32,828 nt of DNA from a bacterium ADurb.Bin236 (GTDB lineage: Bacteria > UBP15 > UBA6099), in the NCBI GenBank assembly GCA_002069885.1, contig MWCD01000043.1, positions 1 through 32,828 on the forward strand, in the 5' to 3' direction. The number at the start of each line of letters is the position of its first letter. Position 1 is the stretch's first letter. Shown here piece by piece: positions 488 through 23,391 of the stretch. A program made the position numbers and the translations under genes. The notes beneath the pieces are model-generated. The model saw nothing but the letters and a program-made list of their open reading frames with translations. It was not told where the DNA came from and did no database searches.

Positions 488-3400
488 ATGAATGTCTTTC
501 AGACACACGCCCAAATTGTATCGGACTATGAGAACTACATCCGCAGCTTCCTTAATATTTCAGATGAAGGCATACGAAATGTTGTAGAGGATGAGTTGAG
601 AAAGAAGAAGCTCTGGCCAGAGCCATTGCTCCAATTCAATCCATCTTATGAAACCGAAGAGAAACTCGACGATCTCGTAAATTCAGGAACCCTACATAAA
701 GACATCCGGGACATTTTCAAAGGTTATTCTCTATACAAACATCAGGTAGAAGCAATTCGGTTAGGGACAAGTGGAAAGGACTTCGTTGTAACGTCAGGAA
801 CCGGTTCTGGAAAATCGCTGACATACATAGGCTCCATTTTCCACCACCTGTTGTTGCATCCAAACAGCGAGGGTGTTGCCGCAGTTGTTGTTTATCCCAT
901 GAACGCCCTTATCAATTCGCAGTCAGAGGAATTCTCGCGATACAAAGGCAACTATGAAAAGGCAACCGGGAAAGAGTTCCCTATTACATTCGGTCAGTAC
1001 ACAGGACAGGAAAAAGAGGAAGTTCGCAAAAAGTTACGTGAGAAGCCGCCACAGATTCTCCTGACCAACTACATGATGCTGGAGCTTCTTTTAACGAGGC
1101 TCAGAGAACGAAGCATACGCGACGCTATCTTTGCCAATCTTCGCTTTCTTGTGTTTGACGAACTTCACACATATCGCGGTCGGCAGGGAGCCGACGTGGC
1201 AATGCTTATTCGCCGTATCCGCTCACGCTGCGCAAACACTGTTTCCTGTATTGGAACATCCGCCACAATGGTTTCTGTTGGAAGCGTTGCTTCCCAGAAA
1301 GAACAGGTGGCGAAAGTCGCAACAACGCTTTTCGGGCAACAATTTACATCCGGACAGGTAGTCAATGAGAAGCTCACGCGGTCACTTGCCTATGGAGGGA
1401 CAATTCCCACAGGCAAAGAACTCGCCGATGCGATCAAGTCGGGCATCGATACGCAGCAAGATTCTGAACGGCTCAAATCACACCCTGTAGCCGTCTGGCT
1501 TGAAAACCGTGTTGCTCTCCAAAACATCGAGGGCGATCTGGTAAGGGGCAAGCCCCAGCGCATCAATGATGTCGTTTCAAGCCTGTCCGAGGAATCAGGC
1601 ATGGCGGAAACAGAATGCCGTAAGTTTCTTGCAGACATGCTTCAATGGATTAGCCTTGCAAATAAAAGGCTACAGGACTCAGGCCAGCGTTATACCATTC
1701 TGCCATTCAAGCTTCACCAGTTCATTTCACAGACTGGCTCGGTTTACACAACGCTCGACCAGGATGAAAACAGATTCATCACCCTTGAGCCGGGATTCTT
1801 CAAGCAGGACGAAGCAGACAAGAAACCGATCTTTCCAAATGTGTTCAGCCGTGCAACAGGACATGAATTTATTTGTGTGTCCCGTACCGGGGACCGCTTG
1901 GAACCGCGTGAGTTCCGTGAAAGCTCGGATGAAGATGAAGATGCGACGGACGGCTACCTGATTATTGGGGACGATGTCTGGAGGCCAGAAGAAGACATGG
2001 AATTGCTTCCTGATTCATGGCTTCGCAAAACAAAAAAGGGGTTGGCGCCAGACTCGAAAAAGAAAGCTTTCTTTCCAGTCGAACTTTACTTCGACGAATT
2101 CGGCAACTGCTCTGAATCCAAGCCGTTGAAATGGCGAGGCTGGTTCATGAAGTCACCACTTCTGTTTGACCCTACGGGAGGAGTTTTCTTCGACACAAAA
2201 ACGAGCGAAGGAACAAAGCTCACGAAGCTGGGCAGTGAGGGAAGAAGCACATCGACTACCATAACCGCCTTCTCCATTCTGAATCAGCTCAATGATGCAG
2301 GTTATCATGCAAAGGATCAGAAGCTACTCAGCTTTACGGACAACCGCCAGGATGCCGCATTGCAGGCAGGCCATTTCAACGATTTCGTTCAAGTCATACG
2401 ACTGAGGGCGGGAATTTACAAAGCATTGGAACAGTCGGAGGATAAACGCCTCAACTTCAAGAATCTCGGCGAGGCTGTTTTCAAAGCCCTAAATCTCCCG
2501 TTCCTTGATTACGCCACAAAAAATGAAGAGCCCCAACTTGCGAACGTTCGGCGCATTTACGAACAGTGTTTTCAGTCTTTTCTCTTTTACCGTGCGATTG
2601 CCGATCTGCGACGCAGTTGGAGAATCATTCTCCCAAATCTCGAACAGTGCGGCCTGTTGAACATCGATTATCTGGATTTGGAGGAAGTGGCGCAAACTGA
2701 CGCTTTCTGGCAGGACACCCCGATTCTGAATGAACTTAATCACGAGGACAGGGAAGATTTTATTTGCACCATACTGGATTATTTCCGCCTTGAATTCGCT
2801 ATCCACAGCGAAAACTTTCTCACGCAGTCGAAAATCAAAGAGTATGAAAAGGAGTTCAGAGAATCACTGCGCGCCCCATGGACGCTTGACCGTAACGAAT
2901 CTTTGCGAGAGCCTTATTACATCCGTTACGATACGCTCAAGAAGTCAGCAAAGCTGTTCTCAAAAAGCATGGGGCCGGCCAGCGCATTGGGTAAATTCAT
3001 CAAGCTCTATGTCCGCCAGCAGAATCTCCCTGTTGACCTCAAAGGCGAGAACTACCGCGACTTTATTCTGCACCTTATGAGCAAACTCGAAGAAGCGGAT
3101 TACCTCATCAAGCACACCGCGAGAAACGAGGGGAATGAGGAAGTTCCGATCTACCGGCTCAGGATTGAAAAGATTATCTGGAGCATCGGCGACGGCGAAA
3201 ATGTAAAAGCCGATGTCGTGAAACGGCGCGCATACAAAGAACAGGTAAAGAAGCCCAATTACTTTTTCAAAGAGATGTACCAGCGTGATTTTTCGAAGAT
3301 GAAGAAACTGCGCGGCGAAGACCATACTGGACAACTTAAAAACGAGGCGCGACAAGATCGGGAAGACCGATTCAGAGCGGATTGGTATCTCGACGACGAC

Positions 3401-5665
3401 AAGAAAAACCTTGATGAAAAAAAGATACGAAGCGAGTCAATCAGCGCATTGTTCTGTTCGCCAACGATGGAACTCGGCATAGACATCGGTGGCCTGAGCG
3501 TGGTCCATCTTCGCAATGCGCCTCCAAATCCCTCCAACTACGCCCAGCGTTCGGGCCGGGCCGGTCGAAGTGGACAAGGCGCACTTGTGTTTACCTACTG
3601 CTCCAGTTACTCTCCTCACGACCGCCATTATTTTCAGCAACAGGTTGAACTTGTTGCTGGAGCCGTGCAGGCTTCCCGGCTCGACCTTTGCAACCGCGAA
3701 CTGCTTCTGACTCATCTCAACGCGCTCGCGGTTTCCGAGATAGGCATGCCCGGTCTTGAGGCTGATGAACAGGGAGGCGACCGGCCATCCATAATGAAGT
3801 TCATTGTGGACGACAACGACACGCTTCCGCTTTCGTCTCAGGTTGTTGCCGGACTTGAGATTGCTCCAAAGACCTTCAATGAACTCAAAGCGACTTTCAA
3901 AAGAGTCATTAACGATTTCGCGCCCGACCTCGAATCAAAGGCATCCAACTGGTACTCAGACCAATGGATTGAGCAGAACCTCAGCAAGCTCGCAGAGCAC
4001 CTCGACGGTTCTCTCAATCGCTGGAGGCGGCTGTACCGTTCGGCAAGGACCATCCTAACCAGCGCGTCCCAGAAAATCGAAAGCGGCACGCTCCAGCACG
4101 GGAGCGATGAGTACAAAAAGCAAAAGAGGAATCAGGATCAGGCCTTGCGGCAAATCGATCTGCTCAGGAACGATCTCGGCGGCAGGTCATCGGAATTGTC
4201 CGAGTTCTATCCTTACCGGTATCTTGCTTCCGAAGGGTTCCTGCCCGGATACAATTTCACTCGTCTGCCACTTCGCATCTTTCTTCCAACAGGCGATTCA
4301 TCCGGCGAATTCATATCCAGACCGCGCTACATCGCGCTCAGGGAATTCGGCCCGCTCAATGTCATTTACCACAACGGAAGGAAGTACAAGGTTTCCCAGC
4401 TTGTTGTTCAGGACGCCGAATCAGCATTGACGGATGCGCGAATCAGCAAGAAGGCCGGATACTTCCTGACCGACGATCAGAAAGACATGGAGTTCTGCCC
4501 GTTCACCGGCCTGAGCCTTGGCGACAACGCAAACAAAGAGCATCTTCATCATCTTCTGGAAATGTCCGAATCCCGCGCAGACGAAGTTGACCGCATTTCC
4601 TGTGAGGAGGAAGAGCGGGTGTCGCGCGGTTATGAAATCAAAACATTCTTCTCCGTCGACGGCGGGAATCTTGAGCGCGTGCAGAAAGCCATTGTGCGCT
4701 CAAGCGACAACTCATATCTCAATCTGCGTTATGTGCCCGCCGCGCGGCTTATACATGTGAACTACCAGTGGCGGTACCAGAAAAACGAGGGCTTTCCCAT
4801 CGGCATGGTATCCGGCGACTGGCGCAGTTCCATGCCTGAGCCCGGCAGTAACATTAAAGAGGAGTACCGACTAATCAAACTCTGGACGTCCAACCTTGCG
4901 GATTCACTTTACATTGAACCCATCCAGCCGCTTGGACTCAAAAAAGAAGGCGTCGTTACTTTGGAGCATGCTCTGAAACGCGCCATCGAAAGTGTGTTTC
5001 AGGTCGAACCCAGCGAGATAGGTGTTGTCGCTGTCGGAGACCCCGAAGCTCCCAACATCCTTCTTTACGAAGCTGCGGAGGGAAGTCTCGGCATCCTGTC
5101 ACAGTTCATGGAAGATGTGAATGTATTCCACAAGGTTGTTGAGCAGGCGATTGCCATTTGCCGTTATGATGACCCGGAATACAAAGGCCCCGCAACCTAC
5201 GACGACCTCCTGAGCTATTACAACCAGCGCGACCACAAAACCATAGACCGCCATCTTATAAAGGATGCTCTGGAAAAACTGCTCATTTGCGACATTGAGA
5301 TTCAAACCAATGTCGGGTTTGCCAATTATGAGGAACAGTATCAGAACATGCGCCGCAATCTCGATCCAAACTCATCGACAGAACTGAAGTTCCTCTCTTA
5401 TCTTTATGATAACGGTCTGCGCCTACCTGACGCGGCGCAGAAACGCGTGGAAGGACTATATGTCCAGCCGGACTTTTATTATGAGCCGCGAATCTGGGTG
5501 TTCTGCGACGGCACTCCGCATGACGACCCCGCCGTGCAGGCGGATGACGAGCAGAAACGCCAGGCGATCATCGCAAAGGGCGATGAGGTCTGGGTTTACT
5601 ATTACAGGGACAACCTCGCCGAAAAGATCGCGGCGCGGCCCGACATGTTCAGGAAGGTGCGATGA
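488..5665 (+). CDS. DISARM-like DEAD/DEAH helicase with degenerate DUF1998-like domain and C-terminal nuclease-like tail
   Basis: This is a 1725-aa superfamily 2 helicase and the first gene of the operon. The N-terminal core carries Walker A TSGTGSGKS (residues 102-110), DEAH-box variant DELH (224-227) and the SAT motif (258-260). After a long insertion the second RecA domain ends with QRSGRAGRSG (1020-1029). A later region (about 1500-1600) resembles the DUF1998/MZB domain of MrfA- and DrmB-type proteins, but the usual zinc cysteines are replaced (TYDDLLSYYNQ near 1570-1580). The last 70 residues have a Vsr/DUF559-like pattern, PDFYYE (1661-1666) then VFCDGTPHD, which may be a nuclease fold. 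The protein could be a DrmA/DrmB-like fusion; a DrmA alone is usually shorter. It shares an ATGA overlap with the next gene. A role as DNA translocase in phage restriction is inferred from family and neighbours. The GAGGG site at 475-479 supports the start. Confidence 0.85.
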   Translation: MNVFQTHAQIVSDYENYIRSFLNISDEGIRNVVEDELRKKKLWPEPLLQFNPSYETEEKLDDLVNSGTLHKDIRDIFKGYSLYKHQVEAIRLGTSGKDFVVTSGTGSGKSLTYIGSIFHHLLLHPNSEGVAAVVVYPMNALINSQSEEFSRYKGNYEKATGKEFPITFGQYTGQEKEEVRKKLREKPPQILLTNYMMLELLLTRLRERSIRDAIFANLRFLVFDELHTYRGRQGADVAMLIRRIRSRCANTVSCIGTSATMVSVGSVASQKEQVAKVATTLFGQQFTSGQVVNEKLTRSLAYGGTIPTGKELADAIKSGIDTQQDSERLKSHPVAVWLENRVALQNIEGDLVRGKPQRINDVVSSLSEESGMAETECRKFLADMLQWISLANKRLQDSGQRYTILPFKLHQFISQTGSVYTTLDQDENRFITLEPGFFKQDEADKKPIFPNVFSRATGHEFICVSRTGDRLEPREFRESSDEDEDATDGYLIIGDDVWRPEEDMELLPDSWLRKTKKGLAPDSKKKAFFPVELYFDEFGNCSESKPLKWRGWFMKSPLLFDPTGGVFFDTKTSEGTKLTKLGSEGRSTSTTITAFSILNQLNDAGYHAKDQKLLSFTDNRQDAALQAGHFNDFVQVIRLRAGIYKALEQSEDKRLNFKNLGEAVFKALNLPFLDYATKNEEPQLANVRRIYEQCFQSFLFYRAIADLRRSWRIILPNLEQCGLLNIDYLDLEEVAQTDAFWQDTPILNELNHEDREDFICTILDYFRLEFAIHSENFLTQSKIKEYEKEFRESLRAPWTLDRNESLREPYYIRYDTLKKSAKLFSKSMGPASALGKFIKLYVRQQNLPVDLKGENYRDFILHLMSKLEEADYLIKHTARNEGNEEVPIYRLRIEKIIWSIGDGENVKADVVKRRAYKEQVKKPNYFFKEMYQRDFSKMKKLRGEDHTGQLKNEARQDREDRFRADWYLDDDKKNLDEKKIRSESISALFCSPTMELGIDIGGLSVVHLRNAPPNPSNYAQRSGRAGRSGQGALVFTYCSSYSPHDRHYFQQQVELVAGAVQASRLDLCNRELLLTHLNALAVSEIGMPGLEADEQGGDRPSIMKFIVDDNDTLPLSSQVVAGLEIAPKTFNELKATFKRVINDFAPDLESKASNWYSDQWIEQNLSKLAEHLDGSLNRWRRLYRSARTILTSASQKIESGTLQHGSDEYKKQKRNQDQALRQIDLLRNDLGGRSSELSEFYPYRYLASEGFLPGYNFTRLPLRIFLPTGDSSGEFISRPRYIALREFGPLNVIYHNGRKYKVSQLVVQDAESALTDARISKKAGYFLTDDQKDMEFCPFTGLSLGDNANKEHLHHLLEMSESRADEVDRISCEEEERVSRGYEIKTFFSVDGGNLERVQKAIVRSSDNSYLNLRYVPAARLIHVNYQWRYQKNEGFPIGMVSGDWRSSMPEPGSNIKEEYRLIKLWTSNLADSLYIEPIQPLGLKKEGVVTLEHALKRAIESVFQVEPSEIGVVAVGDPEAPNILLYEAAEGSLGILSQFMEDVNVFHKVVEQAIAICRYDDPEYKGPATYDDLLSYYNQRDHKTIDRHLIKDALEKLLICDIEIQTNVGFANYEEQYQNMRRNLDPNSSTELKFLSYLYDNGLRLPDAAQKRVEGLYVQPDFYYEPRIWVFCDGTPHDDPAVQADDEQKRQAIIAKGDEVWVYYYRDNLAEKIAARPDMFRKVR

Positions 5666-8529
5666 GCGTATCACTACAACCCGGAAAGCTTATTACCCTT
5701 CGGGGAAGAGACTGGATTGTCCAGCCATCAGATGATCCCGATCTTCTGGTCGTTAGGCCTCTCGGCGGCTCCGATGAAGAAATCACCGGCATTTTCATGC
5801 CTCTCGGCATTGCATCGGACAATCCGAAAGATGCCAGATTCAATGAACCCACTTCGGCGGACCTTGGCGACATCAGCACGGCGCGGCTGATTTACGACTC
5901 CGCCCGTCTCGCGTTCAGAAACGGAGCCGGTCCGTTCCGCTGTCTCGCCAAGCTCTCATTCCGCCCGCGCTCATACCAGATGGTTCCCCTCATCATGGCT
6001 TTGCGCCAGGATTCCGTGCGCATGCTCATTGCCGATGATGTCGGCGTCGGCAAGACCATCGAAACGATTCTCATAGTCAAGGAACTGCTTGAACGGCGAA
6101 AAATCAGACGCTTCGCCGTCGTGTGCCTGCCGCACCTCTGCGAACAGTGGCAGGCTGAAATCCGGGCTAAAATTGATCTGGAGGCCGTCATCATCCGCTC
6201 CAGCACTCAGGCGCGGCTCGACCGCGAAATCCACGGCGACACCAGTGTTTACGAGTATTACCCTTATCAGGTTATCAGCATTGACTACATCAAATCCCAG
6301 CAGCGTTCGAGCGTGTTCGTGGAGCAATGTCCGGAACTCGTAATCGTGGACGAGGCCCACACCTGCGCCCGGCCCGCCGGCAAATCAGCTTCACAACAGC
6401 AGCGTTATCATCTTATAAACAACATCGCAAAGAAACCCGGACAGCAGCTTATTCTCCTCACGGCCACTCCCCACAGCGGCAAGCCTGAGGAATTTCATTC
6501 CCTGCTCGGGCTGATAAAGCCATCATTCGAATCCATTGATCTGCCAAGCTCAACCCAGCCGGAACGCAAAGAACTCGCGCGTTACTTCGTTCAGCGCAAG
6601 CGCGCCGACGTGGAGAAATGGATGGGAGAGGAAACGCCGTTCCCGGTGCGCGAGGCTACCGAATGGCCTTATGATCTTTCAAAAGACCACGCCGCTTTTT
6701 TTGAAGACATCCTCGACTTTGCCCGCAAACTGATTGCTCCCGATCCGGAGGGCAGACAAAAGAAGGTTCAGTATTGGACCGCGCTTGCCTTGCTTCGTGG
6801 CATCATGTCCAGCCCGGCTGCCGGAATCGAAATGCTGAACACGAGACTATCCAACCTTGCCTCTTTTGTGGAAGACGACACAAAGGCCACCAGCGAAGAA
6901 GCTGTGGACGCGGAGCAAAACCCGGTCGGAGACACCGAGTTCGGATTCGAGGGCGACAATGCCCCCACCCATGTCGTTGAAAGCAACGACTGGAGCGCCT
7001 ACCAGCGTCAGCAGCTTCGTGAGTTCACCAAACAGTTGGAATCATTGCGCGGCATGGGGCATGACCACAAGCTCATATCCGCCGAGATGATCATCGAGGA
7101 CTGGCTCAAGCAAGGATTCAATCCAGTTATCTTCTGCCGCTACATCAAGACAGCCGACTACGTGGGTGAGCATCTCGCCCCGTTTCTGAAAAACAGATTC
7201 CCCAAGCTTGATGCGCAAGTCATTACAAGCGAGATGCCCGACGAACTGCGGAGAGCGCAGATTGAGGGCATGGGCAAATCCCAACAACGATTGCTCATCG
7301 CCACCGACTGTCTGAGCGAAGGTATAAACCTCCAGGACTATTTCACGGCTGTGTTGCATTATGACCTGCCGTGGAATCCGAACAGGCTCGAACAGCGTGA
7401 AGGCCGTGTTGACCGTTTCGGCCAGAATGCCAAGAAGGTGCAAGCCTGTCTCCTGTACTGTTCAGGAAAAACAATCGACGCCATAGTGCTCGATGTCCTG
7501 CTTCGCAAGGTGCGCGAAATCAAGAAGGACACCGGCATAAGCGTGCCATTCCCGGAAGATTCACAAAGCGTCATTGATACCATTACTCAGGCATTGCTTC
7601 TCAACCCAAACAGGCAGATTCAGACACGTCGGTTCGACCAGCAAATAACGTTCGACTTCGGGGACTTCGGCGAAGCTGCCGAGGCCAAGGTCAACGTCTC
7701 CCGCAAACTGGCTGAAGCCGCTGCCCGTGAAAAAGTGTCGCGTAGCATCTTCGCCCAAAACGCAATCAAGGCGCAGGAGATTGAAGCCGACCTCAAAGAG
7801 ATGGATGAAGCCATCGGCGACCCCAAAGCCGTCGAGGAATTCGTCACCAGCACGCTCAACAACCTTTTCGGCGTGCAGGTCATTCCCCATAAAAAGGGAT
7901 ACCGCGTCGTCATGGGCAACATGCCGCCGCAGTTGCGCGACCTGTTGACGCCCGGCGATCCAGTTCAAATCAGCTTTCTTTCACCAACGCCGGAAGGGTA
8001 TCACTATCTCGGGCGCAATAACCGATTTGTCGAGCAACTCTGCCAACTGGTGATGGCGAACACAATAGCCCGCGTGGACAAACGCGCCGCTCGCGCCGCC
8101 GTCATCCGCACAAAACAGGTTTCCATAAAAACCACTCTGCTGCTCTTCCGCTGCCGTAATGTCATTGAGCAGCAGAAAGGCCGTCAGCAGATTGTCGCCG
8201 AGGAAATGATCCTCTGGGGCTGGCGCGGCACGCCGCAGCAAAAGGAATTCCTCGAACACGCGGAAGCCAAAACTCTTCTCGCCAATGCGCGCGCGGCTTC
8301 CGAACTGTCCCCGCAATCAAGGGCGAATTTCCTCGACAACGAACTCAAGTTGCTGGACACGCTCGTCGCGGATTTCGACACTGTGGCTGAACGTCAGTCA
8401 AAGAAACTTGTCGAAGCCCACGAGCGTTTCAGTTCCCTAATGGATGGCAAACGGTTTCAGGTCGTTTACCCGGTGTTGCCCATGGACCTGCTCGGCATAT
8501 ACGTCCTTCTTCCGGAGGGCGCCCAATGA
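5662..8529 (+). CDS. DrmD-like SNF2-family helicase/ATPase
   Basis: This 955-aa protein is an SNF2-type superfamily 2 ATPase. Walker A is DDVGVGKT (125-132), the DEAH box lies at 230-233, motif III is TATPHSG (267-273) and motif VI is REGRVDRFGQ (579-588). The N-terminal part with its GRDWIVQPSDDPDLL stretch and the LGGSDEEITGI segment resembles DrmD of class 1 DISARM as I remember it. The middle insertion around 400-440 is acidic and probably flexible; the C-terminal 300 residues look helical. The start overlaps the upstream stop (ATGA) and the stop overlaps the methyltransferase start in the same way, which implies coupled translation and equal expression of the three large proteins. It likely translocates on DNA as part of the defence complex. 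Confidence 0.88.
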   Translation: MSVSLQPGKLITLRGRDWIVQPSDDPDLLVVRPLGGSDEEITGIFMPLGIASDNPKDARFNEPTSADLGDISTARLIYDSARLAFRNGAGPFRCLAKLSFRPRSYQMVPLIMALRQDSVRMLIADDVGVGKTIETILIVKELLERRKIRRFAVVCLPHLCEQWQAEIRAKIDLEAVIIRSSTQARLDREIHGDTSVYEYYPYQVISIDYIKSQQRSSVFVEQCPELVIVDEAHTCARPAGKSASQQQRYHLINNIAKKPGQQLILLTATPHSGKPEEFHSLLGLIKPSFESIDLPSSTQPERKELARYFVQRKRADVEKWMGEETPFPVREATEWPYDLSKDHAAFFEDILDFARKLIAPDPEGRQKKVQYWTALALLRGIMSSPAAGIEMLNTRLSNLASFVEDDTKATSEEAVDAEQNPVGDTEFGFEGDNAPTHVVESNDWSAYQRQQLREFTKQLESLRGMGHDHKLISAEMIIEDWLKQGFNPVIFCRYIKTADYVGEHLAPFLKNRFPKLDAQVITSEMPDELRRAQIEGMGKSQQRLLIATDCLSEGINLQDYFTAVLHYDLPWNPNRLEQREGRVDRFGQNAKKVQACLLYCSGKTIDAIVLDVLLRKVREIKKDTGISVPFPEDSQSVIDTITQALLLNPNRQIQTRRFDQQITFDFGDFGEAAEAKVNVSRKLAEAAAREKVSRSIFAQNAIKAQEIEADLKEMDEAIGDPKAVEEFVTSTLNNLFGVQVIPHKKGYRVVMGNMPPQLRDLLTPGDPVQISFLSPTPEGYHYLGRNNRFVEQLCQLVMANTIARVDKRAARAAVIRTKQVSIKTTLLLFRCRNVIEQQKGRQQIVAEEMILWGWRGTPQQKEFLEHAEAKTLLANARAASELSPQSRANFLDNELKLLDTLVADFDTVAERQSKKLVEAHERFSSLMDGKRFQVVYPVLPMDLLGIYVLLPEGAQ

Positions 8530-11500
8530 ACTTTCCCAGCATTCGCATAGAAGGCGCAATCCTCTCTCCGGACATTCTCGACCGCTTGGAGGACATCCAC
8601 GGCCAGCGTCCCGTGGACTTCGGCTTCGATTCCTCCACAAAAGTTAAGGATGCGATCGTTCGCGCATGGGCGGACGCGCAGGATTACTGGCGCATCTTTC
8701 AGCGCAAGGTCGATGGCCTCAGAGCCGATTCCCCGGCCACAACTGAAACGCGCAACCTCTGGATCGTTCCGCTGCTCGGACTCCTCGGATACCAGACTGA
8801 ATACCAGCCTCGTGCCGTGGAGGTCAGCGGAAAGACCTATGCCATTTCCCATCGCGCAACCAATCGCGGACAGACTCCCGTCCACATCATCGGTTGCAAG
8901 GAACCCTCCGGACTGGATAAGAAGCCTGAGAAGGCAGTCCTGCGCATGTCCGCTCACGCCATGCTTCAGGAGTTCCTCAATCTTCAGGAGGAACTTTACG
9001 GCATCGTAACCAACGGTCGCCTCCTGCGCCTGCTGCGCGATAGTTCCCGCCTTGTCAAACTCTCCTATCTCGAATTCGACCTCGACCGCATCTTCACGGA
9101 CGGCCTATTCGCCGATTTCGCCGTCATGTTCCGGCTACTGCACGCAAGTCGCCTGCCGGCCACAATCGAAGGCTCATCAGAAAGCCTCATCGAGCGATAC
9201 CATCAGGACTCTCTCGATTCCGGCGCGCGCATCCGCGACGGTCTCAGCCGCGCTGTCGAACAGGCTATCCGCGACTTCGCAAACGGATTCCTCTCGCATC
9301 CGGATAACGTATCTCTGCGGGAATCCATAAGCTCCGGGACGCTGCTCCCAAAAGACTACTACCAGCATTTGCTCCGTCTCATCTATCGCATCCTCTTTCT
9401 GCTCGTTATCGAGGAACGCGACCTTGTCTATCCCAAGGATGCCGACAAAGCAAAGCGGGACATCTATTACGACTGCTACAGTCTCCAGCGTCTCCGCCGC
9501 TTGTCGGAGAAACGCTGGCTTGCCGACCGTAGCAAGCACGACCTCTGGCTTTCATTGCTCACTGCTTTCCGCCTCTTCGAGGCTGGAGGCCCCGGCGCAA
9601 AACTCGGCATCGCTCCGCTTGCCGGAGATCTCTTCAGCCCAAACGCCATACGCGAACTCGGCCAGTGCATGCTCGGCAACGACGTCCTTCTCGGTTGCCT
9701 TCGCGCTCTCAACATGTACGAGAATCTCGATACCCATCAGACCATCCGCGTTAATTACGCCGCGCTCAATGTCGAGGAGTTCGGCTCCGTATATGAAGGA
9801 CTGCTGGAATATGACCCTGTTTTTAACATCAATGGAAACCGGATTGAATTCGCGTTCGCACAAGGTGGCGAGCGTGCCGCTACTGGCTCACACTACACGC
9901 CTGATGACCTTGTGCAGCCGCTTCTCAAACATTCTCTCGATTATCTCATTGCGGACAAACTCAAGGAATCTGATAAAGAGAAGGCTCTGCTCTCGCTTCG
10001 CGTGGCGGACATTTCTTGCGGCTCCGGCCACATCCTGCTCGCCGCTGCCCGCCGCATTGCCACCGAACTGGCAATCGTTCGCACAAAGGAAGACCAACCT
10101 TCACCTAAAGCGTTCCGCGAGGCGCAGAGGGATGTCATCCGCGAGTGCATCTATGGCGTGGACATCAACCCGCTTGCCGTGGAACTTTGCAAGGTTGCGC
10201 TATGGCTCGAAGCCCACAATCCCGGAATGCCGCTCAATTTCCTCGACCACCACATAAAATGTGGGAACGCCATTGTCGGTTTCACGCGACGCGGTGAGGT
10301 CGAAAGAGGTGTGCCGGATGAAGCCTTCAAAACCATGCCAGGCGATGATAAGGAGACCATTGCGGAACTTCGCAAGCGCAATAAGATGGAGCGTGCGAAA
10401 CGCGAAAAGATTGTCGAGACGGAACTTGAACTCTCGCCGGAGATCAGCAAATACCTCGAAGGCATTCTGACGAGGTGGCGGGACATCTCCAACCTGCCGG
10501 AGCGCACACCAGAGGAAATCGAAACAAAAAAACAACGCTACATCGAATTCACTCAGAGTCCGGACGCATGGCTGCTCAATCAGATTTCGAGCATCCCAAT
10601 AGCTCAGTTCTACCTACCGAAAACTCAGGATATCGAATCAAAAATCATCACAGACGCCGAGTTCCGACTTTACTGGACAGGAAAACATCATCCGCAGGGT
10701 CAGGGAACGGCTGCCGCGCTCGCGCTCGCCCATCAGAAACGATTCTTTCATTGGTTCCTCGAATTCCCGGAAATTATTCAGCGCGGCGGATTCGACTGCA
10801 TACTTGGAAATCCACCGTACATGGGCGGAACGAATCTTAGTGGTACTTATGGCTATCCCTTCTGTGAGTTTGTAAAGTGGGAGTATGCCCCAACCGGTCT
10901 CAGTGATCTTGTTACGTATTTCGTACGCCGTATTTACAATCTGTTGCACAAAAACGGATTCACTGCATTTATAACAACAAACTCAATTAAGGATGGGGAC
11001 ATTCGTAAGGATGGTCTTGAACAGGTGATTGCCAATGGTGGAGCAATCAATTTCGCTGTTAGAGGTATCAAATGGCCGGGGCGTGCAAATCTGGTGGTCT
11101 CACTCGTTGCTATTCACAAAGGGAAATGGAATCGCAAATGTTTGTTGGATGGCAAAGAAGAAAATGTAATTAGCGCACACTTAGAAGGGTACATAGATGC
11201 TGGTCCCCCGATCATCTTGGGCAGTAATACCAACTACATGTATGAGGGGTCCAAGCCACTATCAGACGGATTTATTCTTTCTCATGAGGAAGCTGAAAGA
11301 ATCGTTCAGTCTGATCCGCGTTATAAGGAAGTGATTTTTCCGATCATAAATGGTAATGAATTAAACAATGAACCTTGTCAGACACCAGGAAAAAGCATAA
11401 TCAACTTCTTCAACTGGACGATGGATAAGGCCCGTGAATACGAATTGCCTTTTCAGATCGTAGAACAACGAGTGAAACCTGATAGGGAAAAACAGAATGA

Positions 11501-12308
11501 CAAGATAGGCAAGGAGAAATGGTGGCTGTATCTACGTCCTCGAATCGAGATGTACTCAAAAATTAGCCATTTATCTCGCTGCTTCACGGCTGCTCGTACA
11601 ACTAAGCATCTCAATTTCTCTGCTGCCCCTACCAACTATGTTTTCACGGAGGCACTTAAAGTCTTCACCACGGACCGATGGGACCTGTACACCGTTGTCC
11701 AGTCCACCCTGCACGAAGTTTGGGCGCGAAAGTATAGCGGATCACTTGAAACACGACTTCGTTATTCACCAACAGACTGTTTTGATAATTTCCCATTTCC
11801 CGAAGGCCTTTGGAAGACGGCAAATCCCACGCTTGCGGAGACCGGCGAACGCTATCACGAATTCCGTCGCGCACTCATGAAGCAACTCTGGCTTGGGCTC
11901 ACGGACATCTACAACCTGTACCACGCTTGCGACCTCTCTTCGGAGAAAGTCGCGAAGGTCAGTAAGAAGCCGCTGGCCGAGGCTGAGGCGGGTTATATCG
12001 GCATCCTCGAACTGCGCCGCCTGCACGTGGAACTGGACACCGCCATCCGCGACGCCTACGGCTGGAGCGACCTCGATCTCGGCCACGACTTCCACGAACT
12101 CGAATTCCTTGCCGAGAACGACCGCGTCCGCTACACCATCAGCCCCGACGCCCGCCGCGAAGTCCTCAAACGCCTGCTCGCCCTGAACCACGAACGCGCC
12201 GCCCAGCAGTCCGCCGCACCCGCCCCCAAGAAAACAACCCACCGCAAAAAGGACTCAACCGGCCAACTCTTCGCCGATGAAGGGGAACTCTTCGATAATT
12301 CCAGATAG
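8526..12308 (+). CDS. Eco57I/DrmMI-like N6-adenine DNA methyltransferase
   Basis: This 1260-aa protein is a large gamma-type adenine methyltransferase of the Eco57I/PglX/DrmMI group. Motif I, DISCGSGH (495-502), would bind S-adenosylmethionine, and the catalytic motif IV is NPPYMGG (762-768). About 490 residues precede motif I, as in type IIG and DISARM enzymes; I cannot see a clear intact PD-(D/E)XK nuclease there. The part after motif IV, expected to hold the target recognition domain, is encoded by clearly more AT-rich DNA (about 10830-11660) than the flanks, suggesting recombinational exchange of specificity. The start shares an ATGA overlap with the SNF2 gene. In DISARM-type systems the methylase marks host DNA as self. 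The C-terminus ends in a basic, alanine-rich tail. Confidence 0.88.
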   Translation: MNFPSIRIEGAILSPDILDRLEDIHGQRPVDFGFDSSTKVKDAIVRAWADAQDYWRIFQRKVDGLRADSPATTETRNLWIVPLLGLLGYQTEYQPRAVEVSGKTYAISHRATNRGQTPVHIIGCKEPSGLDKKPEKAVLRMSAHAMLQEFLNLQEELYGIVTNGRLLRLLRDSSRLVKLSYLEFDLDRIFTDGLFADFAVMFRLLHASRLPATIEGSSESLIERYHQDSLDSGARIRDGLSRAVEQAIRDFANGFLSHPDNVSLRESISSGTLLPKDYYQHLLRLIYRILFLLVIEERDLVYPKDADKAKRDIYYDCYSLQRLRRLSEKRWLADRSKHDLWLSLLTAFRLFEAGGPGAKLGIAPLAGDLFSPNAIRELGQCMLGNDVLLGCLRALNMYENLDTHQTIRVNYAALNVEEFGSVYEGLLEYDPVFNINGNRIEFAFAQGGERAATGSHYTPDDLVQPLLKHSLDYLIADKLKESDKEKALLSLRVADISCGSGHILLAAARRIATELAIVRTKEDQPSPKAFREAQRDVIRECIYGVDINPLAVELCKVALWLEAHNPGMPLNFLDHHIKCGNAIVGFTRRGEVERGVPDEAFKTMPGDDKETIAELRKRNKMERAKREKIVETELELSPEISKYLEGILTRWRDISNLPERTPEEIETKKQRYIEFTQSPDAWLLNQISSIPIAQFYLPKTQDIESKIITDAEFRLYWTGKHHPQGQGTAAALALAHQKRFFHWFLEFPEIIQRGGFDCILGNPPYMGGTNLSGTYGYPFCEFVKWEYAPTGLSDLVTYFVRRIYNLLHKNGFTAFITTNSIKDGDIRKDGLEQVIANGGAINFAVRGIKWPGRANLVVSLVAIHKGKWNRKCLLDGKEENVISAHLEGYIDAGPPIILGSNTNYMYEGSKPLSDGFILSHEEAERIVQSDPRYKEVIFPIINGNELNNEPCQTPGKSIINFFNWTMDKAREYELPFQIVEQRVKPDREKQNDKIGKEKWWLYLRPRIEMYSKISHLSRCFTAARTTKHLNFSAAPTNYVFTEALKVFTTDRWDLYTVVQSTLHEVWARKYSGSLETRLRYSPTDCFDNFPFPEGLWKTANPTLAETGERYHEFRRALMKQLWLGLTDIYNLYHACDLSSEKVAKVSKKPLAEAEAGYIGILELRRLHVELDTAIRDAYGWSDLDLGHDFHELEFLAENDRVRYTISPDARREVLKRLLALNHERAAQQSAAPAPKKTTHRKKDSTGQLFADEGELFDNSR

Positions 12309-12326
12309 TTCAAGAGGAAACAAATT

Positions 12327-13418
12327 ATGGCTAAAAAAGACAAACGTAATCTACCAATGAAGCCGGAAACAGCGTCTGAGTTCATCTTGTACCAGGCCGA
12401 TGACGGCCAGACGAAGATTCAGGTCCGGCTCGTGGACGGAACTGTGTGGCTGCCGCAGCGTTCGATTGCGGAGCTTTTCCAGAAATCCACGCCAACCGTA
12501 AATGAGCACATAGCCAACATCTACGAGGAGGGTGAACTGGCCCCCGAGGCAACTGTTCGGAAATTCCGAATAGTTCAACCGGAAGGAACCCGACGGGTGG
12601 AACGGCTGGTGGACTTCTACAACCTCGACATGATTCTCGCGGTTGGCTACCGCGTCCGGTCCCACCGGGGCACGCAGTTCCGCCAGTGGGCCACACGCAC
12701 CCTCAGCGAGTTTCTCGTCAAAGGGTTCGTGATGGACGACGAGAGGCTCAAGCAAGGCCGCAACATCGGCGAAGATTATTTCGATGAGCTTCTGGAGCGA
12801 ATCAGAGCCATACGGGCATCCGAGCGCCGCTTTTACCAGAAGATCACGGACATTTACGCCACGAGCATCGACTACGACCCAAACGTGGAGATTACACAAA
12901 CATTTTACGCAACGGTCCAGAACAAGCTTCACTGGGCCATCCACGGCCACACAGCCGCGGAGGTCATCGTGGAGCGCGCCGACGCATCCAAGCCGCACAT
13001 GGGACTGACTACATGGAAGAATTCTCCGCGCGGCCGCATCCGGAAGGCGGACGCCACGATTGCCAAAAATTACCTCTCGGAAAAGGAAATCAGCGACCTT
13101 GACCGCATCGTGACCATGTATCTGGACTATGCCGAGCTTCAGGCCGACAACCGGCGTCCGATGCACATGGCGGACTGGATCAAGAGGCTCGACGCGTTCC
13201 TGCAATTCAATGAGAAGAATATCCTGGCGAATCCGGGCAAAGTGTCGCACGAGCTTGCCCTTGAGCATGCGGAGGCCGAGTTCGAAAAGTTCGACGCCGC
13301 GCGCCGCAGTCTGGAGGCCACACAGCCCGTCAGCGACTTCGACCACGTCGTGGAGCAGGTCAAGCAACTGGGCAAGGGCTCCGCAAAACCACCGAACAAT
13401 AGAAAAAAGCGGAAGTGA
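12327..13418 (+). CDS. RhuM-family protein
   Basis: This 363-aa protein resembles the RhuM (virulence protein RhuM) family. The N-terminal half has the typical layout: a short beta region with VWLPQRSIAELF, a helix-turn-helix-like segment (STPTVNEHIANIYEEGEL), then RKFRIVQ, the YNLDMILAVGYRVRS motif and FRQWAT. The C-terminal half is helical and contains FYATVQNKLHWAIHG. RhuM genes often sit inside restriction-modification and DISARM-type loci, but their molecular role is unsettled; DNA binding is plausible from the N-terminal part. An AGAGGAAA ribosome site lies just upstream and the gap after the methyltransferase stop is 18 nt, so it belongs to the same operon. Confidence 0.85.
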   Translation: MAKKDKRNLPMKPETASEFILYQADDGQTKIQVRLVDGTVWLPQRSIAELFQKSTPTVNEHIANIYEEGELAPEATVRKFRIVQPEGTRRVERLVDFYNLDMILAVGYRVRSHRGTQFRQWATRTLSEFLVKGFVMDDERLKQGRNIGEDYFDELLERIRAIRASERRFYQKITDIYATSIDYDPNVEITQTFYATVQNKLHWAIHGHTAAEVIVERADASKPHMGLTTWKNSPRGRIRKADATIAKNYLSEKEISDLDRIVTMYLDYAELQADNRRPMHMADWIKRLDAFLQFNEKNILANPGKVSHELALEHAEAEFEKFDAARRSLEATQPVSDFDHVVEQVKQLGKGSAKPPNNRKKRK

Positions 13419-13422
13419 GCAG

Positions 13423-13623
13423 ATGATTCCCGACATGGATCACGACGGAGATATCGACGGCAGGGATTACTACGACGATCTCGGCGGCGCGTATCATTTT
13501 GCTCCGAAAGAGCTTAAAGACGATCTGTCCGCACCGCCGTCACCGGGTATGATAACCGCCGCACGCGTACTATCTGCGTTGTTCTGGATTGCGGTGCTTT
13601 TTTTATTGTTGTGGGTGTTCTGA
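13423..13623 (+). CDS. 66-aa membrane microprotein with an EF-hand-like calcium loop
   Basis: This short gene starts 4 nt after the rhuM stop. The protein begins MIPDMDHDGDIDGRD, an acidic loop spacing Asp residues like an EF-hand or dockerin calcium site (Asp4, Asp6, Asp8, Asp10, Asp12). A linker follows, then a single hydrophobic segment (about residues 47-66, ending LFLLLWVF) that would anchor the C-terminus in the membrane. It has no signal peptide, so the acidic loop may face the cytoplasm. The following TPR gene starts 1 nt after its stop. I do not recognise the family. Function is unknown; a metal-responsive membrane partner of the TPR protein is one guess. A longer upstream extension in this frame overlaps rhuM and is unlikely to be real. 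Confidence 0.6.
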   Translation: MIPDMDHDGDIDGRDYYDDLGGAYHFAPKELKDDLSAPPSPGMITAARVLSALFWIAVLFLLLWVF

Positions 13624-18929: not shown

Positions 18930-20354
18930 ATGAGTGATGGTGAAACAGGTGCGAATACGAATTTCGGCATCCAGATTATTAAGTGTCGAGATGACAAAAC
19001 TCCAGTGTGTCTTTCCCCTGTAACAGATTCAACCGGAAGCTCAGAGCCGTTCAAATTGAAAGACGAATGTGAATGTTCTTGGATCAAGAAGGACGAGGGT
19101 TTGGGACCAACAAAACTGCGGCCTCGAATAGAGCCTTGGTTGACAGCGCTATTTCAATCTGAACACCTCTCTTTGCTTGTGGGATCTGGGTTATCGTGTG
19201 CGCTTCACAGGATGACTACTGGTAAAGATATCGCAGTTATGGAACCGGTAAAATTCACCGACTATGATGCTGAAATTAAAGCTGGGGCAAATAAGTCCGC
19301 TATAGCAGCTGGTCGTGCTCACGGCAACATTGAGGACCAAATACGTGTTGCTAACGAGTTGCTATGCGGTCTTGAAATTCTGGCTGAAAGTGATGCTGAA
19401 ATATGTAAGAAGGCCGTGAGTCACAAGAATGAGCTAACTTGTATTCTTGACAAATTTGCAGAATCTATCCTGAAATGTGAAAATGGGCTGATATCCTCGG
19501 AGAGTAAGAACCTCGAACAGACATTTAATTATCTTGTGAGCTTCTTGATGAGCTTTGCCAGTAGAACTGGAACGCGTGACAGGTTGAACATTTTTACGAC
19601 AAACTATGATCGATTTATCGAAGCGGGCGCTGATCTTGCCGGGCTCCATTTGCTTGATCGTTTTGTTGGTTCATTAGCACCAATATTCCGGTCGTCCCGG
19701 CTCGATGTTGATATTCACTACAATCCACCTGGCATACGTGGGGAGCCTCGTTACCTTGAAGGGGTCGCTCGATTTACGAAACTGCACGGTTCTCTCGACT
19801 GGGTAAATATCGGGAAGACCATCAGACGCATTGGATTACCTTTAGGGGCTGTGAGTATCGAGCCATACTTGAAAGCTCCTGGACTTACAGGCGCAGACGC
19901 ACTGCAACTTATGATCTATCCAAATTCTGCCAAGGACCGTGAAACAGCCGCTTACCCCTACGTCGATCTATTTCGAGATTTTGCTGCCGCTGTTTGTCGA
20001 CCAAACAGTACAGTCATCTCGTTTGGTTATAGTTTTGGCGATGAGCACATTAATCGTGTAATAGAAGACATGCTCACGATTCCTTCTGCCCATCTTGTCG
20101 TTATTTCGTATAGCGATCCGTTGGGGCGGATCATGAAGACTTATGAGAAACTGGGACGGCACGCTCAGATCACCCTGCTAATCGGCGACCATCTCGGCGA
20201 TTTCCAAACGTTGGTGGATAACTACTTGCCAAAACCAGCGATTGACCGGACCACCTTCCGCATGGCAGAACTCCTTAAATCGCGATGGGCTACCGGGCAA
20301 TCACAATCTCTTGAAGATAAGAATGATTCAGATGGTGGAGGGAGCGGATCATGA
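18930..20354 (+). CDS. SIR2-like NADase of a SIR2-HerA defence system
   Basis: This 474-aa protein carries a SIR2-family domain. The NAD-binding GSGLS (85-89) lies after a roughly 70-residue N-terminal extension; TTNYD (223-227) supplies the conserved Asn and Asp; KLHGSLDW (284-291) holds the catalytic His286; and SFGYSFGDEHIN (364-375) is the C-terminal nucleotide-binding motif. Defence SIR2 proteins cleave NAD+ upon infection and cause abortive growth arrest. The perfect AAGGAGG site at 18914-18920 fixes the start. The stop overlaps the HerA start as ATGA, the hallmark of the coupled SIR2-HerA pair, whose products are known to form a large complex. All the main catalytic residues appear intact. 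Confidence 0.88.
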   Translation: MSDGETGANTNFGIQIIKCRDDKTPVCLSPVTDSTGSSEPFKLKDECECSWIKKDEGLGPTKLRPRIEPWLTALFQSEHLSLLVGSGLSCALHRMTTGKDIAVMEPVKFTDYDAEIKAGANKSAIAAGRAHGNIEDQIRVANELLCGLEILAESDAEICKKAVSHKNELTCILDKFAESILKCENGLISSESKNLEQTFNYLVSFLMSFASRTGTRDRLNIFTTNYDRFIEAGADLAGLHLLDRFVGSLAPIFRSSRLDVDIHYNPPGIRGEPRYLEGVARFTKLHGSLDWVNIGKTIRRIGLPLGAVSIEPYLKAPGLTGADALQLMIYPNSAKDRETAAYPYVDLFRDFAAAVCRPNSTVISFGYSFGDEHINRVIEDMLTIPSAHLVVISYSDPLGRIMKTYEKLGRHAQITLLIGDHLGDFQTLVDNYLPKPAIDRTTFRMAELLKSRWATGQSQSLEDKNDSDGGGSGS

Positions 20355-22435
20355 GCCAATCTCCCTTCGAACACGCGGGGAGCCTGCGGATTGGCACCGT
20401 TGATTTTGTTTCACCAGACGAGATCAAGGTGGCACTCGATATCGAAGCTCCCGAATCGGTCGCTCTAAACGCTGGCGCACCACGTTCTTTCCCACGGGTG
20501 AACAGTTACGTGCTGATTCCTGTGGACGACGGTTTTCTTGTAGGCCAGATTGAATGGCTCACGGTAGAGCGATCCCCATTCCCGAAGCGGCGGGGTATGC
20601 AGGATTTCGGATTGGTAGATTTGCCATATCCATTACGAAAGATGAGCCTGAATCCACTGGGTACTCTTCGAAAAGCATCGTCTGGAACAAACTCGGAAGA
20701 TGAATATAACTTCCGACGCGGTGCTGATGCTCTTCCGTCAATTGGTGCAGGTGTATTATTGCCGACCGATAAACAGCTTCGTTCGATAATCGAATCAGGA
20801 GAACGCAGAAGGGTTAAGATCGGAATCAGTCCTCTTGCTGGCAATGCAGAAGTGTGTATCGATCCAGATCGCTTGTTCGGTCGGCATCTTGCTATTTTGG
20901 GAAATACAGGCAGCGGAAAATCTTGCTCAGTAGCTGGGATCATCCGTTGGTCATTGGAACAAGCCAAAAAAATGAGCGGTTCATTCCCGAATGCCCGCTT
21001 CATAATTTTAGACCCCAATGGAGAGTATTCAAGGGCTTTTTCAGACTTGAATTCTCCGGCAAAGGCACGAATATTCAAAGTCGCTCCCACTGATGGCACT
21101 GCTGAACAGCTACTTCAGGTTCCTCTATGGTTTTTGAATAGTGCTGAATGGTGTTCGCTTACACAGGCCAGTACAAAAACCCAGAGACCAACATTGATAC
21201 AAGCGCTTCGAACAGTAAGGGATGGTCAAGCCGAGCCAACTGAGAACAAAAGTCATGATATTAGGCGTTTCCTAAGAACAATGCTTAGTATCATCCGAAT
21301 TGAGAAAAACTCAGGTGGACCTTGGGGGGCATTTCCTAAGCCAAAATCGTTCTATGAAAAACTTGCAAAATGGAAGGACGGAATAGAACCGGTTTTGACT
21401 GGATTAGCAGGTGAAGAAGAAACCGCATTGAAAACATTAGTCGACAACATCGAAAATCTTTGTTCTCCCAGAAGATTGCCGTATGCCCATTTCGATTTCA
21501 CTCGGCAGGAAATCGACAATTTGCTAAGTGTGGCCTCATTGGCACATTCTGCTTTTGGGGGCAACGAAGGGGACACAATTCCTACGGATGTTGATGCGCC
21601 TCGTGAATTCAAAGGTGAATCACTGCTACGTAGCGTAGAAGCAACTGCAGAGATGTTAAATGTTGCCGAATATGCTGAGACAATGTTGATTCGTATTCGA
21701 AGTCTTTTGGCGGATACTAGGATGAAGTCCATTGTTAGTGATACGGAAGATCTTACTTTACAAAAATGGTTGGATACTTATATAGGAGAAGATTCAGCAA
21801 AGAGCGGTTGTATAACAGTTATTGATTTGTCCCTCGTACCAACAGAAGTAATTCACATTATCACATCTGTTATTGCTCGCGTGGTTTTTGAGGCACTTCA
21901 ACGATATCGCAAGCTGAACGTTGTGACTCTCCCAACGGTTCTAGTTATGGAAGAGGCACACACATTTATAAAACGATACAAGGAAGATGTTGAGAATCAA
22001 GATGCGGCATCAGTATGTTGCCAAGTGTTTGAACGAATTGCTCGAGAGGGCAGGAAGTTCGGCCTCGGCCTTGTTCTATCTTCTCAACGGCCTTCTGAGC
22101 TTTCACAAACAGTTCTTTCCCAGTGCAACACTTTTATCTTGCATCGAATCAGTAACGACCGCGATCAGGAACTTGTTCACAAATTGGTTCCTGATAACCT
22201 CAGGGGGTTGTTACGGGAACTTCCATCATTGCCATCACAGAATGCGATCCTGTTGGGATGGGCATCCGAGTTGCCTGTACTAGTGAGAATGAATGACTTA
22301 CCTCAATCACAACAACCACATTCGGACGACCCGGATTTCTGGAATGTTTGGACTGGCAAAGATGCCGAGGGTGGGACGGTCGAAAGAAAAACGGATTGGA
22401 AACCGATTGCTGATGATTGGCAGGGAAAACCATAA
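20351..22435 (+). CDS. HerA-type hexameric ATPase of a SIR2-HerA defence system
   Basis: This 694-aa protein has an N-terminal HAS-barrel-like region (about residues 10-70) and a HerA/FtsK-type ATPase core. Walker A is GNTGSGKS (184-191), Walker B VLVMEEAH (530-537), and the downstream REGRKFGLGLVLSSQRPSEL segment is typical of HerA, as is the LHRISNDRDQELV motif. A long insertion (about 270-480) separates Walker A and B. HerA proteins form DNA-translocating hexamers; in defence they associate with SIR2, NurA or other effectors and control their activity. It overlaps the SIR2 gene by 4 nt and is followed 10 nt later by the HEPN-like gene. No NurA-type nuclease is seen nearby. Confidence 0.9.
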   Translation: MSQSPFEHAGSLRIGTVDFVSPDEIKVALDIEAPESVALNAGAPRSFPRVNSYVLIPVDDGFLVGQIEWLTVERSPFPKRRGMQDFGLVDLPYPLRKMSLNPLGTLRKASSGTNSEDEYNFRRGADALPSIGAGVLLPTDKQLRSIIESGERRRVKIGISPLAGNAEVCIDPDRLFGRHLAILGNTGSGKSCSVAGIIRWSLEQAKKMSGSFPNARFIILDPNGEYSRAFSDLNSPAKARIFKVAPTDGTAEQLLQVPLWFLNSAEWCSLTQASTKTQRPTLIQALRTVRDGQAEPTENKSHDIRRFLRTMLSIIRIEKNSGGPWGAFPKPKSFYEKLAKWKDGIEPVLTGLAGEEETALKTLVDNIENLCSPRRLPYAHFDFTRQEIDNLLSVASLAHSAFGGNEGDTIPTDVDAPREFKGESLLRSVEATAEMLNVAEYAETMLIRIRSLLADTRMKSIVSDTEDLTLQKWLDTYIGEDSAKSGCITVIDLSLVPTEVIHIITSVIARVVFEALQRYRKLNVVTLPTVLVMEEAHTFIKRYKEDVENQDAASVCCQVFERIAREGRKFGLGLVLSSQRPSELSQTVLSQCNTFILHRISNDRDQELVHKLVPDNLRGLLRELPSLPSQNAILLGWASELPVLVRMNDLPQSQQPHSDDPDFWNVWTGKDAEGGTVERKTDWKPIADDWQGKP

Positions 22436-22445
22436 CAGGGAAAAA

Positions 22446-23303
22446 ATGAACCAAGCAGAGACGAACTATCATGTCAAAACAGATGAACGCAACCACGACA
22501 CGCACAGTTTTAGCTTTCGTTCCGCACGGTGTTTATTCCGATACCTCGGCGAGATTGATGCCTTAGTCGAACTTACAGAGTTGGCCGCCAGATCATTTCT
22601 ACATTCTGCCAAGCAGTCTGACGATGTACGAGCTTATGTCGAATCTTTATCCAAGCAACTTAATATTTGCGTTAATCTTTCTGAGGTCGACTGCCTTTCG
22701 CATCATTTAGCGCGAAGCTACATTGTCACAGTTTACCAATCTGCGGAGCGCTTTTTACACGAATTTCGCGGAGAACACATATTGCTATATGGTAGGGAAT
22801 GGACAGGTGATCGTAAAGATAGTGATCCATTAACCGTTACTTTGCTGAATGTCGCGAGCAACAGGAAAGAGGCGGAGGATAAAATTGGCATAGACCTCAT
22901 AACTTGCTTTCAGTATTACCGCGTTGTTCGCAATTGGATAATCCATACCAAAGACTCTGATTTGAACAAACCATTGCATGCCTTCTGCGAGATAGTTAAA
23001 TATTTACCTGAACATAAAACATTATTTGGCCAGACAGATGCTCCTAATAAACCCAATGAACTAACATTCGACGACTTTATTTTATTTTCCAGGCTGACAA
23101 AATACATTGCGAAGAAGTTGTGCGAAATATCATACCCTCCCGAAAGCTACTGGAAGAAATCTCTTTTAATGCAATTTAATCATTTGCGTAATAATCCGAG
23201 ACGGATGAAAAATGCGTTAACTGGACTATTGAGAACAGAGTATGGTATGGACAAAGAAATTGCCGCAAGGATATCTAATGAACTTTGCGACTCACTAGCA
23301 TAA
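22446..23303 (+). CDS. candidate HEPN-domain ribonuclease, third gene of the SIR2-HerA operon
   Basis: This 285-aa protein is predicted mostly helical. It contains RNWIIH (162-167), which fits the RNxxxH active-site motif of HEPN ribonucleases, placed at the start of a helix after FQYYRVV, as expected for the fold. I do not recognise a named family. The start at 22446 follows the HerA stop by 10 nt with a weak AGGG site; a frame extending to 22293 lies within herA and is unlikely. HEPN proteins often act as effector RNases in toxin-antitoxin and phage defence systems, so a second effector beside the SIR2 NADase is possible; an adaptor role with a dead HEPN fold is the alternative. The last 15 nt of the gene lie inside the tRNA-like gene downstream. 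Confidence 0.65.
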   Translation: MNQAETNYHVKTDERNHDTHSFSFRSARCLFRYLGEIDALVELTELAARSFLHSAKQSDDVRAYVESLSKQLNICVNLSEVDCLSHHLARSYIVTVYQSAERFLHEFRGEHILLYGREWTGDRKDSDPLTVTLLNVASNRKEAEDKIGIDLITCFQYYRVVRNWIIHTKDSDLNKPLHAFCEIVKYLPEHKTLFGQTDAPNKPNELTFDDFILFSRLTKYIAKKLCEISYPPESYWKKSLLMQFNHLRNNPRRMKNALTGLLRTEYGMDKEIAARISNELCDSLA

Positions 23304-23391
23304 TTGGTAGTGCGCCCCCCTCCATGTGCGCATGAAAAGGTTTCATGCTCAGATGAAGGGGAAGGTTCTGGTTCGAATCCAGAGTGAGTCA
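23289..23391 (+). tRNA. tRNA-like gene with an approximately 30-nt insertion in the anticodon loop
   Basis: Most of the cloverleaf is canonical: a perfect 7-bp acceptor stem (23289-23295 with 23384-23390), a D-arm with GCAT/GTGC and the AATTGGTA loop, a 5-nt variable loop, and a perfect 5-bp T stem (TCTGG/CCAGA) around TTCGAAT. The anticodon stem pairs four C with four G (315-318 with 358-361 of 23 kb) plus a C-A mismatch, but the loop is 37 nt rather than 7. It contains a perfect 8-bp hairpin GCATGAAA/TTTCATGC (23330-23337, 23341-23348). If about 30 nt were removed as an intron, the loop could read CTCCAGA, a Trp-type CCA anticodon; this is only one solution. CCA is not encoded. The 5' end overlaps the HEPN-like gene by 15 nt. 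It may be an intron-bearing, degenerate or non-translating tRNA. Confidence 0.65.

What the first reader, a model, noticed from the sequence alone, without database searches (positions are those of the whole stretch)
18930..23303. SIR2-HerA defence pair extended by a candidate HEPN ribonuclease
SIR2 and HerA are known as a two-gene NAD-depleting system. Here a third gene 10 nt downstream encodes a helical protein with RNWIIH, an RNxxxH HEPN motif. The unit would combine an NADase, a DNA-translocating ATPase and an RNase, and I know of no described system with this composition.
Basis: partly seen in the sequence, partly recalled or inferred. Interest (0 to 1): 0.75.

Follow-up and report, generated by a model that had tools for sequence, protein, structure and literature searches.

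The report
SIR2-HerA pair beside HEPN-like gene
Next to a well-known two-gene anti-phage system (SIR2-HerA) lies a gene for a probable RNA-cutting protein of an undescribed HEPN-like family; elsewhere that family sits alone or beside restriction systems, so it looks like a mobile add-on rather than a fixed third part of the system.

Summary
SIR2 (18930-20354) and HerA (20351-22435) are a clear SIR2-HerA pair with intact catalytic motifs. A third gene, T3 (22446-23303, 285 aa), starts 10 nt later behind a Shine-Dalgarno-like AGGGA and matches no curated family. The RNWIIH motif alone is weak: R[NDH]xxxH appears in 13% of shuffled copies. But in nine divergent relatives (23-48% identity) R162, N163, H167 and an upstream glutamate, E101, are invariant. 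AlphaFold puts E101 in the second long helix and RNxxxH at the end of a later helix, where HEPN ribonucleases carry these residues. The best structural match of the core is Gifsy-1 HepS, understood to be a HEPN protein, though at a middling Z of 7.4. So T3 is probably a HEPN ribonuclease of an undescribed family. The three-gene system is not supported: none of 16 other SIR2-HerA loci carries T3, and no T3 relative lies near SIR2-HerA. T3 relatives stand alone or beside restriction systems; the closest lies between hsdS and hsdR. Two close SIR2-HerA relatives also sit behind hsdM. T3 is most likely a mobile auxiliary effector attached to SIR2-HerA once. A tRNA-like RNA overlaps its 3' end.

The parts
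18930..20354 (+). SIR2 (sirtuin-like NADase) gene, 474 aa
   Evidence: PADLOC PDLC04079 E 1.5e-156, Pfam PF13289 E 1.1e-7
19602..19604 (+). SIR2 N225 of FTTNYD, predicted catalytic Asn
   Evidence: identical in 7 aligned SIR2-HerA sirtuins
19785..19787 (+). SIR2 H286 of KLHGS, predicted catalytic His
   Evidence: identical in 7 aligned SIR2-HerA sirtuins
20351..22435 (+). HerA-type DNA-translocase ATPase gene, 694 aa, overlapping SIR2 by 4 nt
   Evidence: PADLOC PDLC04098 E 1.8e-257, Pfam DUF87 E 7e-26; 54-74% identical to HerA of other SIR2-HerA loci
20900..20923 (+). HerA Walker A, GNTGSGKS
   Evidence: invariant in the alignment of five HerA proteins
22437..22441 (+). Shine-Dalgarno-like AGGGA before the third gene
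   Evidence: read directly
22446..23303 (+). T3: HEPN-like protein, 285 aa, undescribed family
   Evidence: no Pfam, NCBIfam, PADLOC or PHROG family; nine homologues aligned; AF2 model mean pLDDT 81.7
22746..22748 (+). T3 E101, invariant acidic residue in the second long helix (78-115)
22929..22946 (+). T3 R162-N163-x3-H167, predicted RNase active site, end of helix 149-166
   Evidence: invariant in nine homologues; helix limits
23289..23391 (+). tRNA-like RNA with an extended anticodon arm, overlapping the 3' end of T3
   Evidence: Rfam RF00005 49.8 bits, E 1.4e-9; MFE -46.7 kcal/mol, z -5.7

Best explanation
A standard SIR2-HerA anti-phage pair has an auxiliary effector gene, T3, attached downstream and probably co-transcribed. 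HerA assembles into a hexamer and SIR2 docks on it; on phage infection the complex turns on NAD+ depletion (inferred from studied SIR2-HerA systems, own knowledge). T3 is most likely a metal-independent HEPN endoribonuclease that pairs two RNxxxH sites in a dimer and cleaves RNA, perhaps tRNA, when released or triggered, so that an infected cell stops growing (inferred). T3 probably works on its own or as a back-up. Its family is mobile and is found alone or beside restriction-modification systems, so its place behind HerA here is a one-off recruitment that uses the SIR2-HerA transcript, not a conserved third subunit. Shown: gene identities, operon layout, invariant HEPN-type residues and their helix positions in a predicted model, contexts of relatives. 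Inferred: HEPN fold, RNase activity, target, trigger, co-transcription and back-up role.
For: SIR2 and HerA family hits and intact motifs. T3 homologues keep E101, Y157, R159, R162, N163, H167 at 23-48% identity. The model puts RNxxxH at the end of one helix and E101 in an earlier long helix, as PMC3710099 describes for HEPN. The core's best VIA-align match is Gifsy-1 HepS, Z 7.4, 144 residues, rmsd 4.5, against 4.9 for the next chain. T3 relatives are standalone on plasmids (L002-L005), inside an hsdMS...R operon (L012), beside a type ISP restriction enzyme (L013) or near a cytosine methyltransferase cluster (L009). 16 other SIR2-HerA loci lack T3. Auxiliary HEPN RNases beside BREX and R-M systems are described (PMC12839542; PMC3710099).
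Against: Foldseek gives no significant match for either model. Profile-profile comparison with HEPN_RiboL-PSP/MAE_28990 gives only about 1-2% probability (score 21 against shuffles up to 15) and does not align the RNxxxH motifs. Z 7.4 is within the range of chance helical-bundle matches stated by the tool. The Ex3[KR] form is kept in only two of nine homologues. No expression data.
Confidence: 0.6

Rival explanations
1. One integrated three-gene system: T3 is a dedicated third subunit, and infection sensing by HerA-SIR2 drives both NAD+ depletion and RNA cleavage.
For: 10-nt spacing with its own Shine-Dalgarno-like site, same strand, no terminator-like site on the + strand between HerA and T3.
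Against: No second example: 16 SIR2-HerA loci with flanking DNA, including HerA up to 73% identical, have no T3; the T3 relatives inspected have no SIR2-HerA nearby.
Confidence: 0.15
2. T3 is an independent anti-phage or toxin gene that merely lies next to SIR2-HerA among accessory genes of a prophage-like cluster, with its own regulation and no shared function.
For: Family members are mostly solitary on plasmids and chromosomes; the locus lies between phage-type amidoligase and endolysin/baseplate genes.
Against: Tight spacing suggests co-expression; promoter-like sites in the region are at chance level (9 found, 7.9 expected).
Confidence: 0.2
3. T3 is an all-helical protein that is not a HEPN RNase; the conserved RNxxxH belongs to another fold, for example an RNA- or nucleotide-binding regulator.
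For: No curated HEPN family matches; Foldseek and profile comparisons are not significant.
Against: The described HEPN sequence features are present at the expected helix positions, and the best structural match is HepS.
Confidence: 0.2

Closest known systems
SIR2-HerA anti-phage system
   Same: Two overlapping genes, catalytic Asn/His of SIR2 and Walker A of HerA intact, same PADLOC models
   Different: Here a HEPN-like gene follows 10 nt downstream; the NCBIfam equivalog SIR2_antiphage is far below its cut-off (120 of 500 bits), so this is another clade than that model
HEPN ribonucleases (Anantharaman 2013, PMC3710099), as auxiliary effectors of R-M and BREX (PMC12839542)
   Same: Rx4H with Asn after Arg, at the end of a helix, conserved acidic residue in the second long helix, encoded beside defence systems
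   Different: No match to any described HEPN family in Pfam, NCBIfam or PADLOC; partner here is SIR2-HerA
Gifsy-1 prophage HepS (PDB 9oij)
   Same: Best structural match of the T3 core (Z 7.4, 144 residues); also prophage-borne
   Different: 8% sequence identity; similarity is moderate and the function of T3 is untested
PrrC/RloC anticodon nucleases
   Same: HEPN-type RNases; PrrC is genetically linked to a type I restriction system, a context also seen for the T3 relative in L012
   Different: T3 has no ABC-ATPase domain; relation taken from the literature, not tested

Membership tests
SIR2-HerA system | SIR2 domain with catalytic Asn and His | tested here: met
   N225 and H286 conserved in seven aligned sirtuins; PADLOC E 1.5e-156
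SIR2-HerA system | HerA/FtsK ATPase with Walker A, adjacent to SIR2 | tested here: met
   DUF87, PADLOC E 1.8e-257, GNTGSGKS invariant, 4-nt gene overlap
SIR2-HerA system | NAD+ depletion on phage infection | not testable with these tools
   needs an assay
HEPN superfamily | Rx4-6H motif at the end of helix 3 | tested here: met
   R162/H167 invariant in nine homologues, at the end of predicted helix 149-166
HEPN superfamily | polar residue (N, D or H) right after the Arg | tested here: met
   N163 invariant
HEPN superfamily | conserved acidic residue in helix 2, typically in Ex3[KR] | tested here: inconclusive
   E101 invariant and in helix 78-115; basic residue at +4 in only two of nine
HEPN superfamily | HEPN four-helix fold | tested here: inconclusive
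   all-helical AF2 models, pLDDT 82-84; best VIA match HepS Z 7.4; Foldseek not significant
HEPN superfamily | profile similarity to a described HEPN family | tested here: inconclusive
   no Pfam/NCBIfam/PADLOC hit; hhalign about 1-2% probability
HEPN superfamily | metal-independent RNase activity | not testable with these tools
   needs an assay
SIR2-HerA-HEPN as one conserved system | trio recurs in unrelated genomes | tested here: not met
   0 of 16 SIR2-HerA loci carry T3, and no T3 relative inspected carries SIR2-HerA in the flank read
Auxiliary/back-up effector beside defence systems | gene immediately next to or inside different defence loci | tested here: met
   window (SIR2-HerA), L012 (inside hsdMS...R), L013 (970 bp from a type ISP enzyme)

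The most novel reading that the evidence does not exclude
A three-effector system: SIR2-HerA senses infection and activates both NAD+ depletion and a HEPN RNase made from the same transcript, with the overlapping tRNA-like RNA as its target or inhibitor.
Probability: 0.08. Interest if true: 0.7.

Novelty: new variant of a known kind. Interest (0 to 1): 0.36.

Why it matters
If T3 is a HEPN RNase, it is a new HEPN family that the defence databases used here miss, found beside SIR2-HerA, type I and type ISP restriction loci across several phyla. It would extend to SIR2-HerA the principle of recruited back-up RNases so far described for R-M and BREX, and it gives a simple test of whether NADase and RNase effectors cooperate. 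SIR2-HerA inside type I restriction operons (two loci) is also worth following.

Tried and rejected
Foldseek against PDB and BFVD with full and core models gave no significant match. Profile-profile comparison with HEPN families was inconclusive (one shuffle failed and gave an artefactual score, ignored). hmmsearch of the T3 profile against PDB sequences found nothing. Viral-contig and phage scans for T3 found none. In genomes T3 is rare: 2 of 386 (the window's own and one distant member) and 1 of 400 (the same distant member). No att-like direct repeat of the tRNA-like element was found in the window. Papers on SIR2-HerA structures were not held.

Full report
Observation. SIR2 (18930-20354) and HerA (20351-22435) overlap by 4 nt and score 1.5e-156 and 1.8e-257 against the PADLOC SIR2 and HerA models. 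The sirtuin motifs GSG, TTNYD and KLHG, and the HerA Walker A, are intact. T3 begins at 22446, 10 nt after HerA, behind AGGGA, and no + strand terminator-like site lies between them.

Is the motif more than chance? By itself, no. Shuffled T3 sequences contain Rx4H in 59% and R[NDH]xxxH in 13% of cases, and T3 has another RNxxxH in its N-terminus. The evidence comes from relatives. Homologues were found on plasmids of Methylobacterium, Bernardetia, Rhizobium and enterobacteria and in MAGs of Planctomycetaceae (48% identity), Bacteroidales, Proteobacteria and Methylococcaceae. In the nine-sequence alignment only 15 of 285 residues are invariant, among them E101, Y157, R159, R162, N163 and H167; the N-terminal RNxxxH is not conserved. 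A more distant relative (L011) has YFRLRRNKIIH.

Fold. AlphaFold models of T3 and of its core (residues 20-232) are all-helical with mean pLDDT 81.7 and 83.9. R162-H167 close helix 149-166, and E101 lies in helix 78-115. PMC3710099 describes HEPN domains as carrying Rx4-6H at the end of helix 3, a polar residue (mostly N, D or H) after the Arg, and often a conserved acidic residue in helix 2. Foldseek found nothing significant. VIA-align ranked Gifsy-1 HepS (9oij) first for the core: Z 7.4, 144 residues, rmsd 4.5, next row 4.9. The tool warns that such Z values can be chance for helical proteins, so I count this as moderate support. That HepS is a HEPN protein is my own knowledge; PMC9879122 reports a predicted HEPN gene, STM14_3211, in the same prophage. 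Profile-profile comparison with HEPN_RiboL-PSP and MAE_28990 members was inconclusive. No curated library names T3.

Context. T3 relatives are solitary on plasmids (L002-L005), lie between ilvN-like and ilvC-like genes (L015, by eye), or stand near restriction systems: in L012 the order is hsdM, hsdS, PLD-domain gene, T3, hsdR; in L013 a type ISP enzyme follows T3; in L009 a cytosine methyltransferase cluster follows. None has SIR2 or HerA in the flank read. Conversely, a T3 profile run with full sensitivity over all frames of 16 SIR2-HerA loci (E. coli, Citrobacter, Proteus, Bradyrhizobium, Sinorhizobium and Paenarthrobacter plasmids, viral contigs, MAGs) found no T3, while it recovered the known relatives. 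The closest HerA relatives, L030 (73%) and L027 (64%), lie in loci that begin with hsdM, with SIR2 directly behind it; in L030 hsdS, a Schlafen-HATPase gene and hsdR follow. So SIR2-HerA and T3 each occur as cargo of type I restriction operons. The trio may be a remnant of such a locus; this is inference.

Surroundings. Left of the locus lies a defence cluster: a DruE-like helicase (488-5665), a DpdE/DrmD-type helicase (5662-8529), a DrmMI/type IIG methyltransferase (8526-12308) and a RhuM-family gene (12327-13418). Nearer are a phage-type amidoligase and a glutamine amidotransferase; to the right are an endolysin/amidase and a baseplate gene. The locus thus sits among phage-related genes. SIR2-HerA in P4-like satellites is known (PMC9122126), and two viral contigs here carry it beside P2-like tail genes (L033, L034, by eye).

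Mechanism. Most likely T3 is an auxiliary HEPN endoribonuclease, probably co-expressed with SIR2-HerA and acting as an independent or back-up abortive effector. HEPN, PIN and Schlafen RNases embedded beside BREX-type systems have been catalogued as back-up effectors (PMC12839542), and HEPN RNases beside R-M systems in PMC3710099. Searches of the held library found no paper describing HEPN with SIR2-HerA; I read only passages of the few closest papers, so the combination appears undescribed but is a new instance of a known theme.

Verdict. The HEPN assignment is probable (about 0.8 by my judgement). The three-part system is unlikely on present evidence (about 0.15).

Noticed in passing
window 23289-23391 (+): tRNA-like RNA (Rfam tRNA 49.8 bits) with intact acceptor, D and T arms and an anticodon arm lengthened by about 35 nt; it overlaps the last codons and stop of T3. 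ARAGORN and the default Rfam pass miss it; no full-length copy in the other genomes of the phylum.
   Followed up: partly
L030 123-11807; L027 2434-9750: SIR2-HerA directly behind hsdM of a type I restriction operon (in L030 followed by hsdS, a Schlafen-HATPase gene and hsdR).
   Followed up: partly
window 488-13418: Defence cluster: DruE-like helicase, DpdE/DrmD-type helicase, DrmMI/type IIG methyltransferase, RhuM-family gene; a mixed composition that I did not match to one named system.
   Followed up: no
L064 870-11390: In Paenarthrobacter plasmid pCZY the SIR2-HerA pair and a recombinase gene lie between two inverted copies of an integrase-HTH-hypothetical module, suggesting a mobile unit.
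   Followed up: no
L015 1077-2813: T3 relative and two small ORFs lie between ilvN-like and ilvC-like genes of a Methylococcaceae MAG, an odd place for a defence gene.
   Followed up: no
window 12327-13436: Two long overlapping ORFs on opposite strands (363 and 361 aa); the + strand one is a RhuM-family gene, the - strand one was not searched.
   Followed up: no
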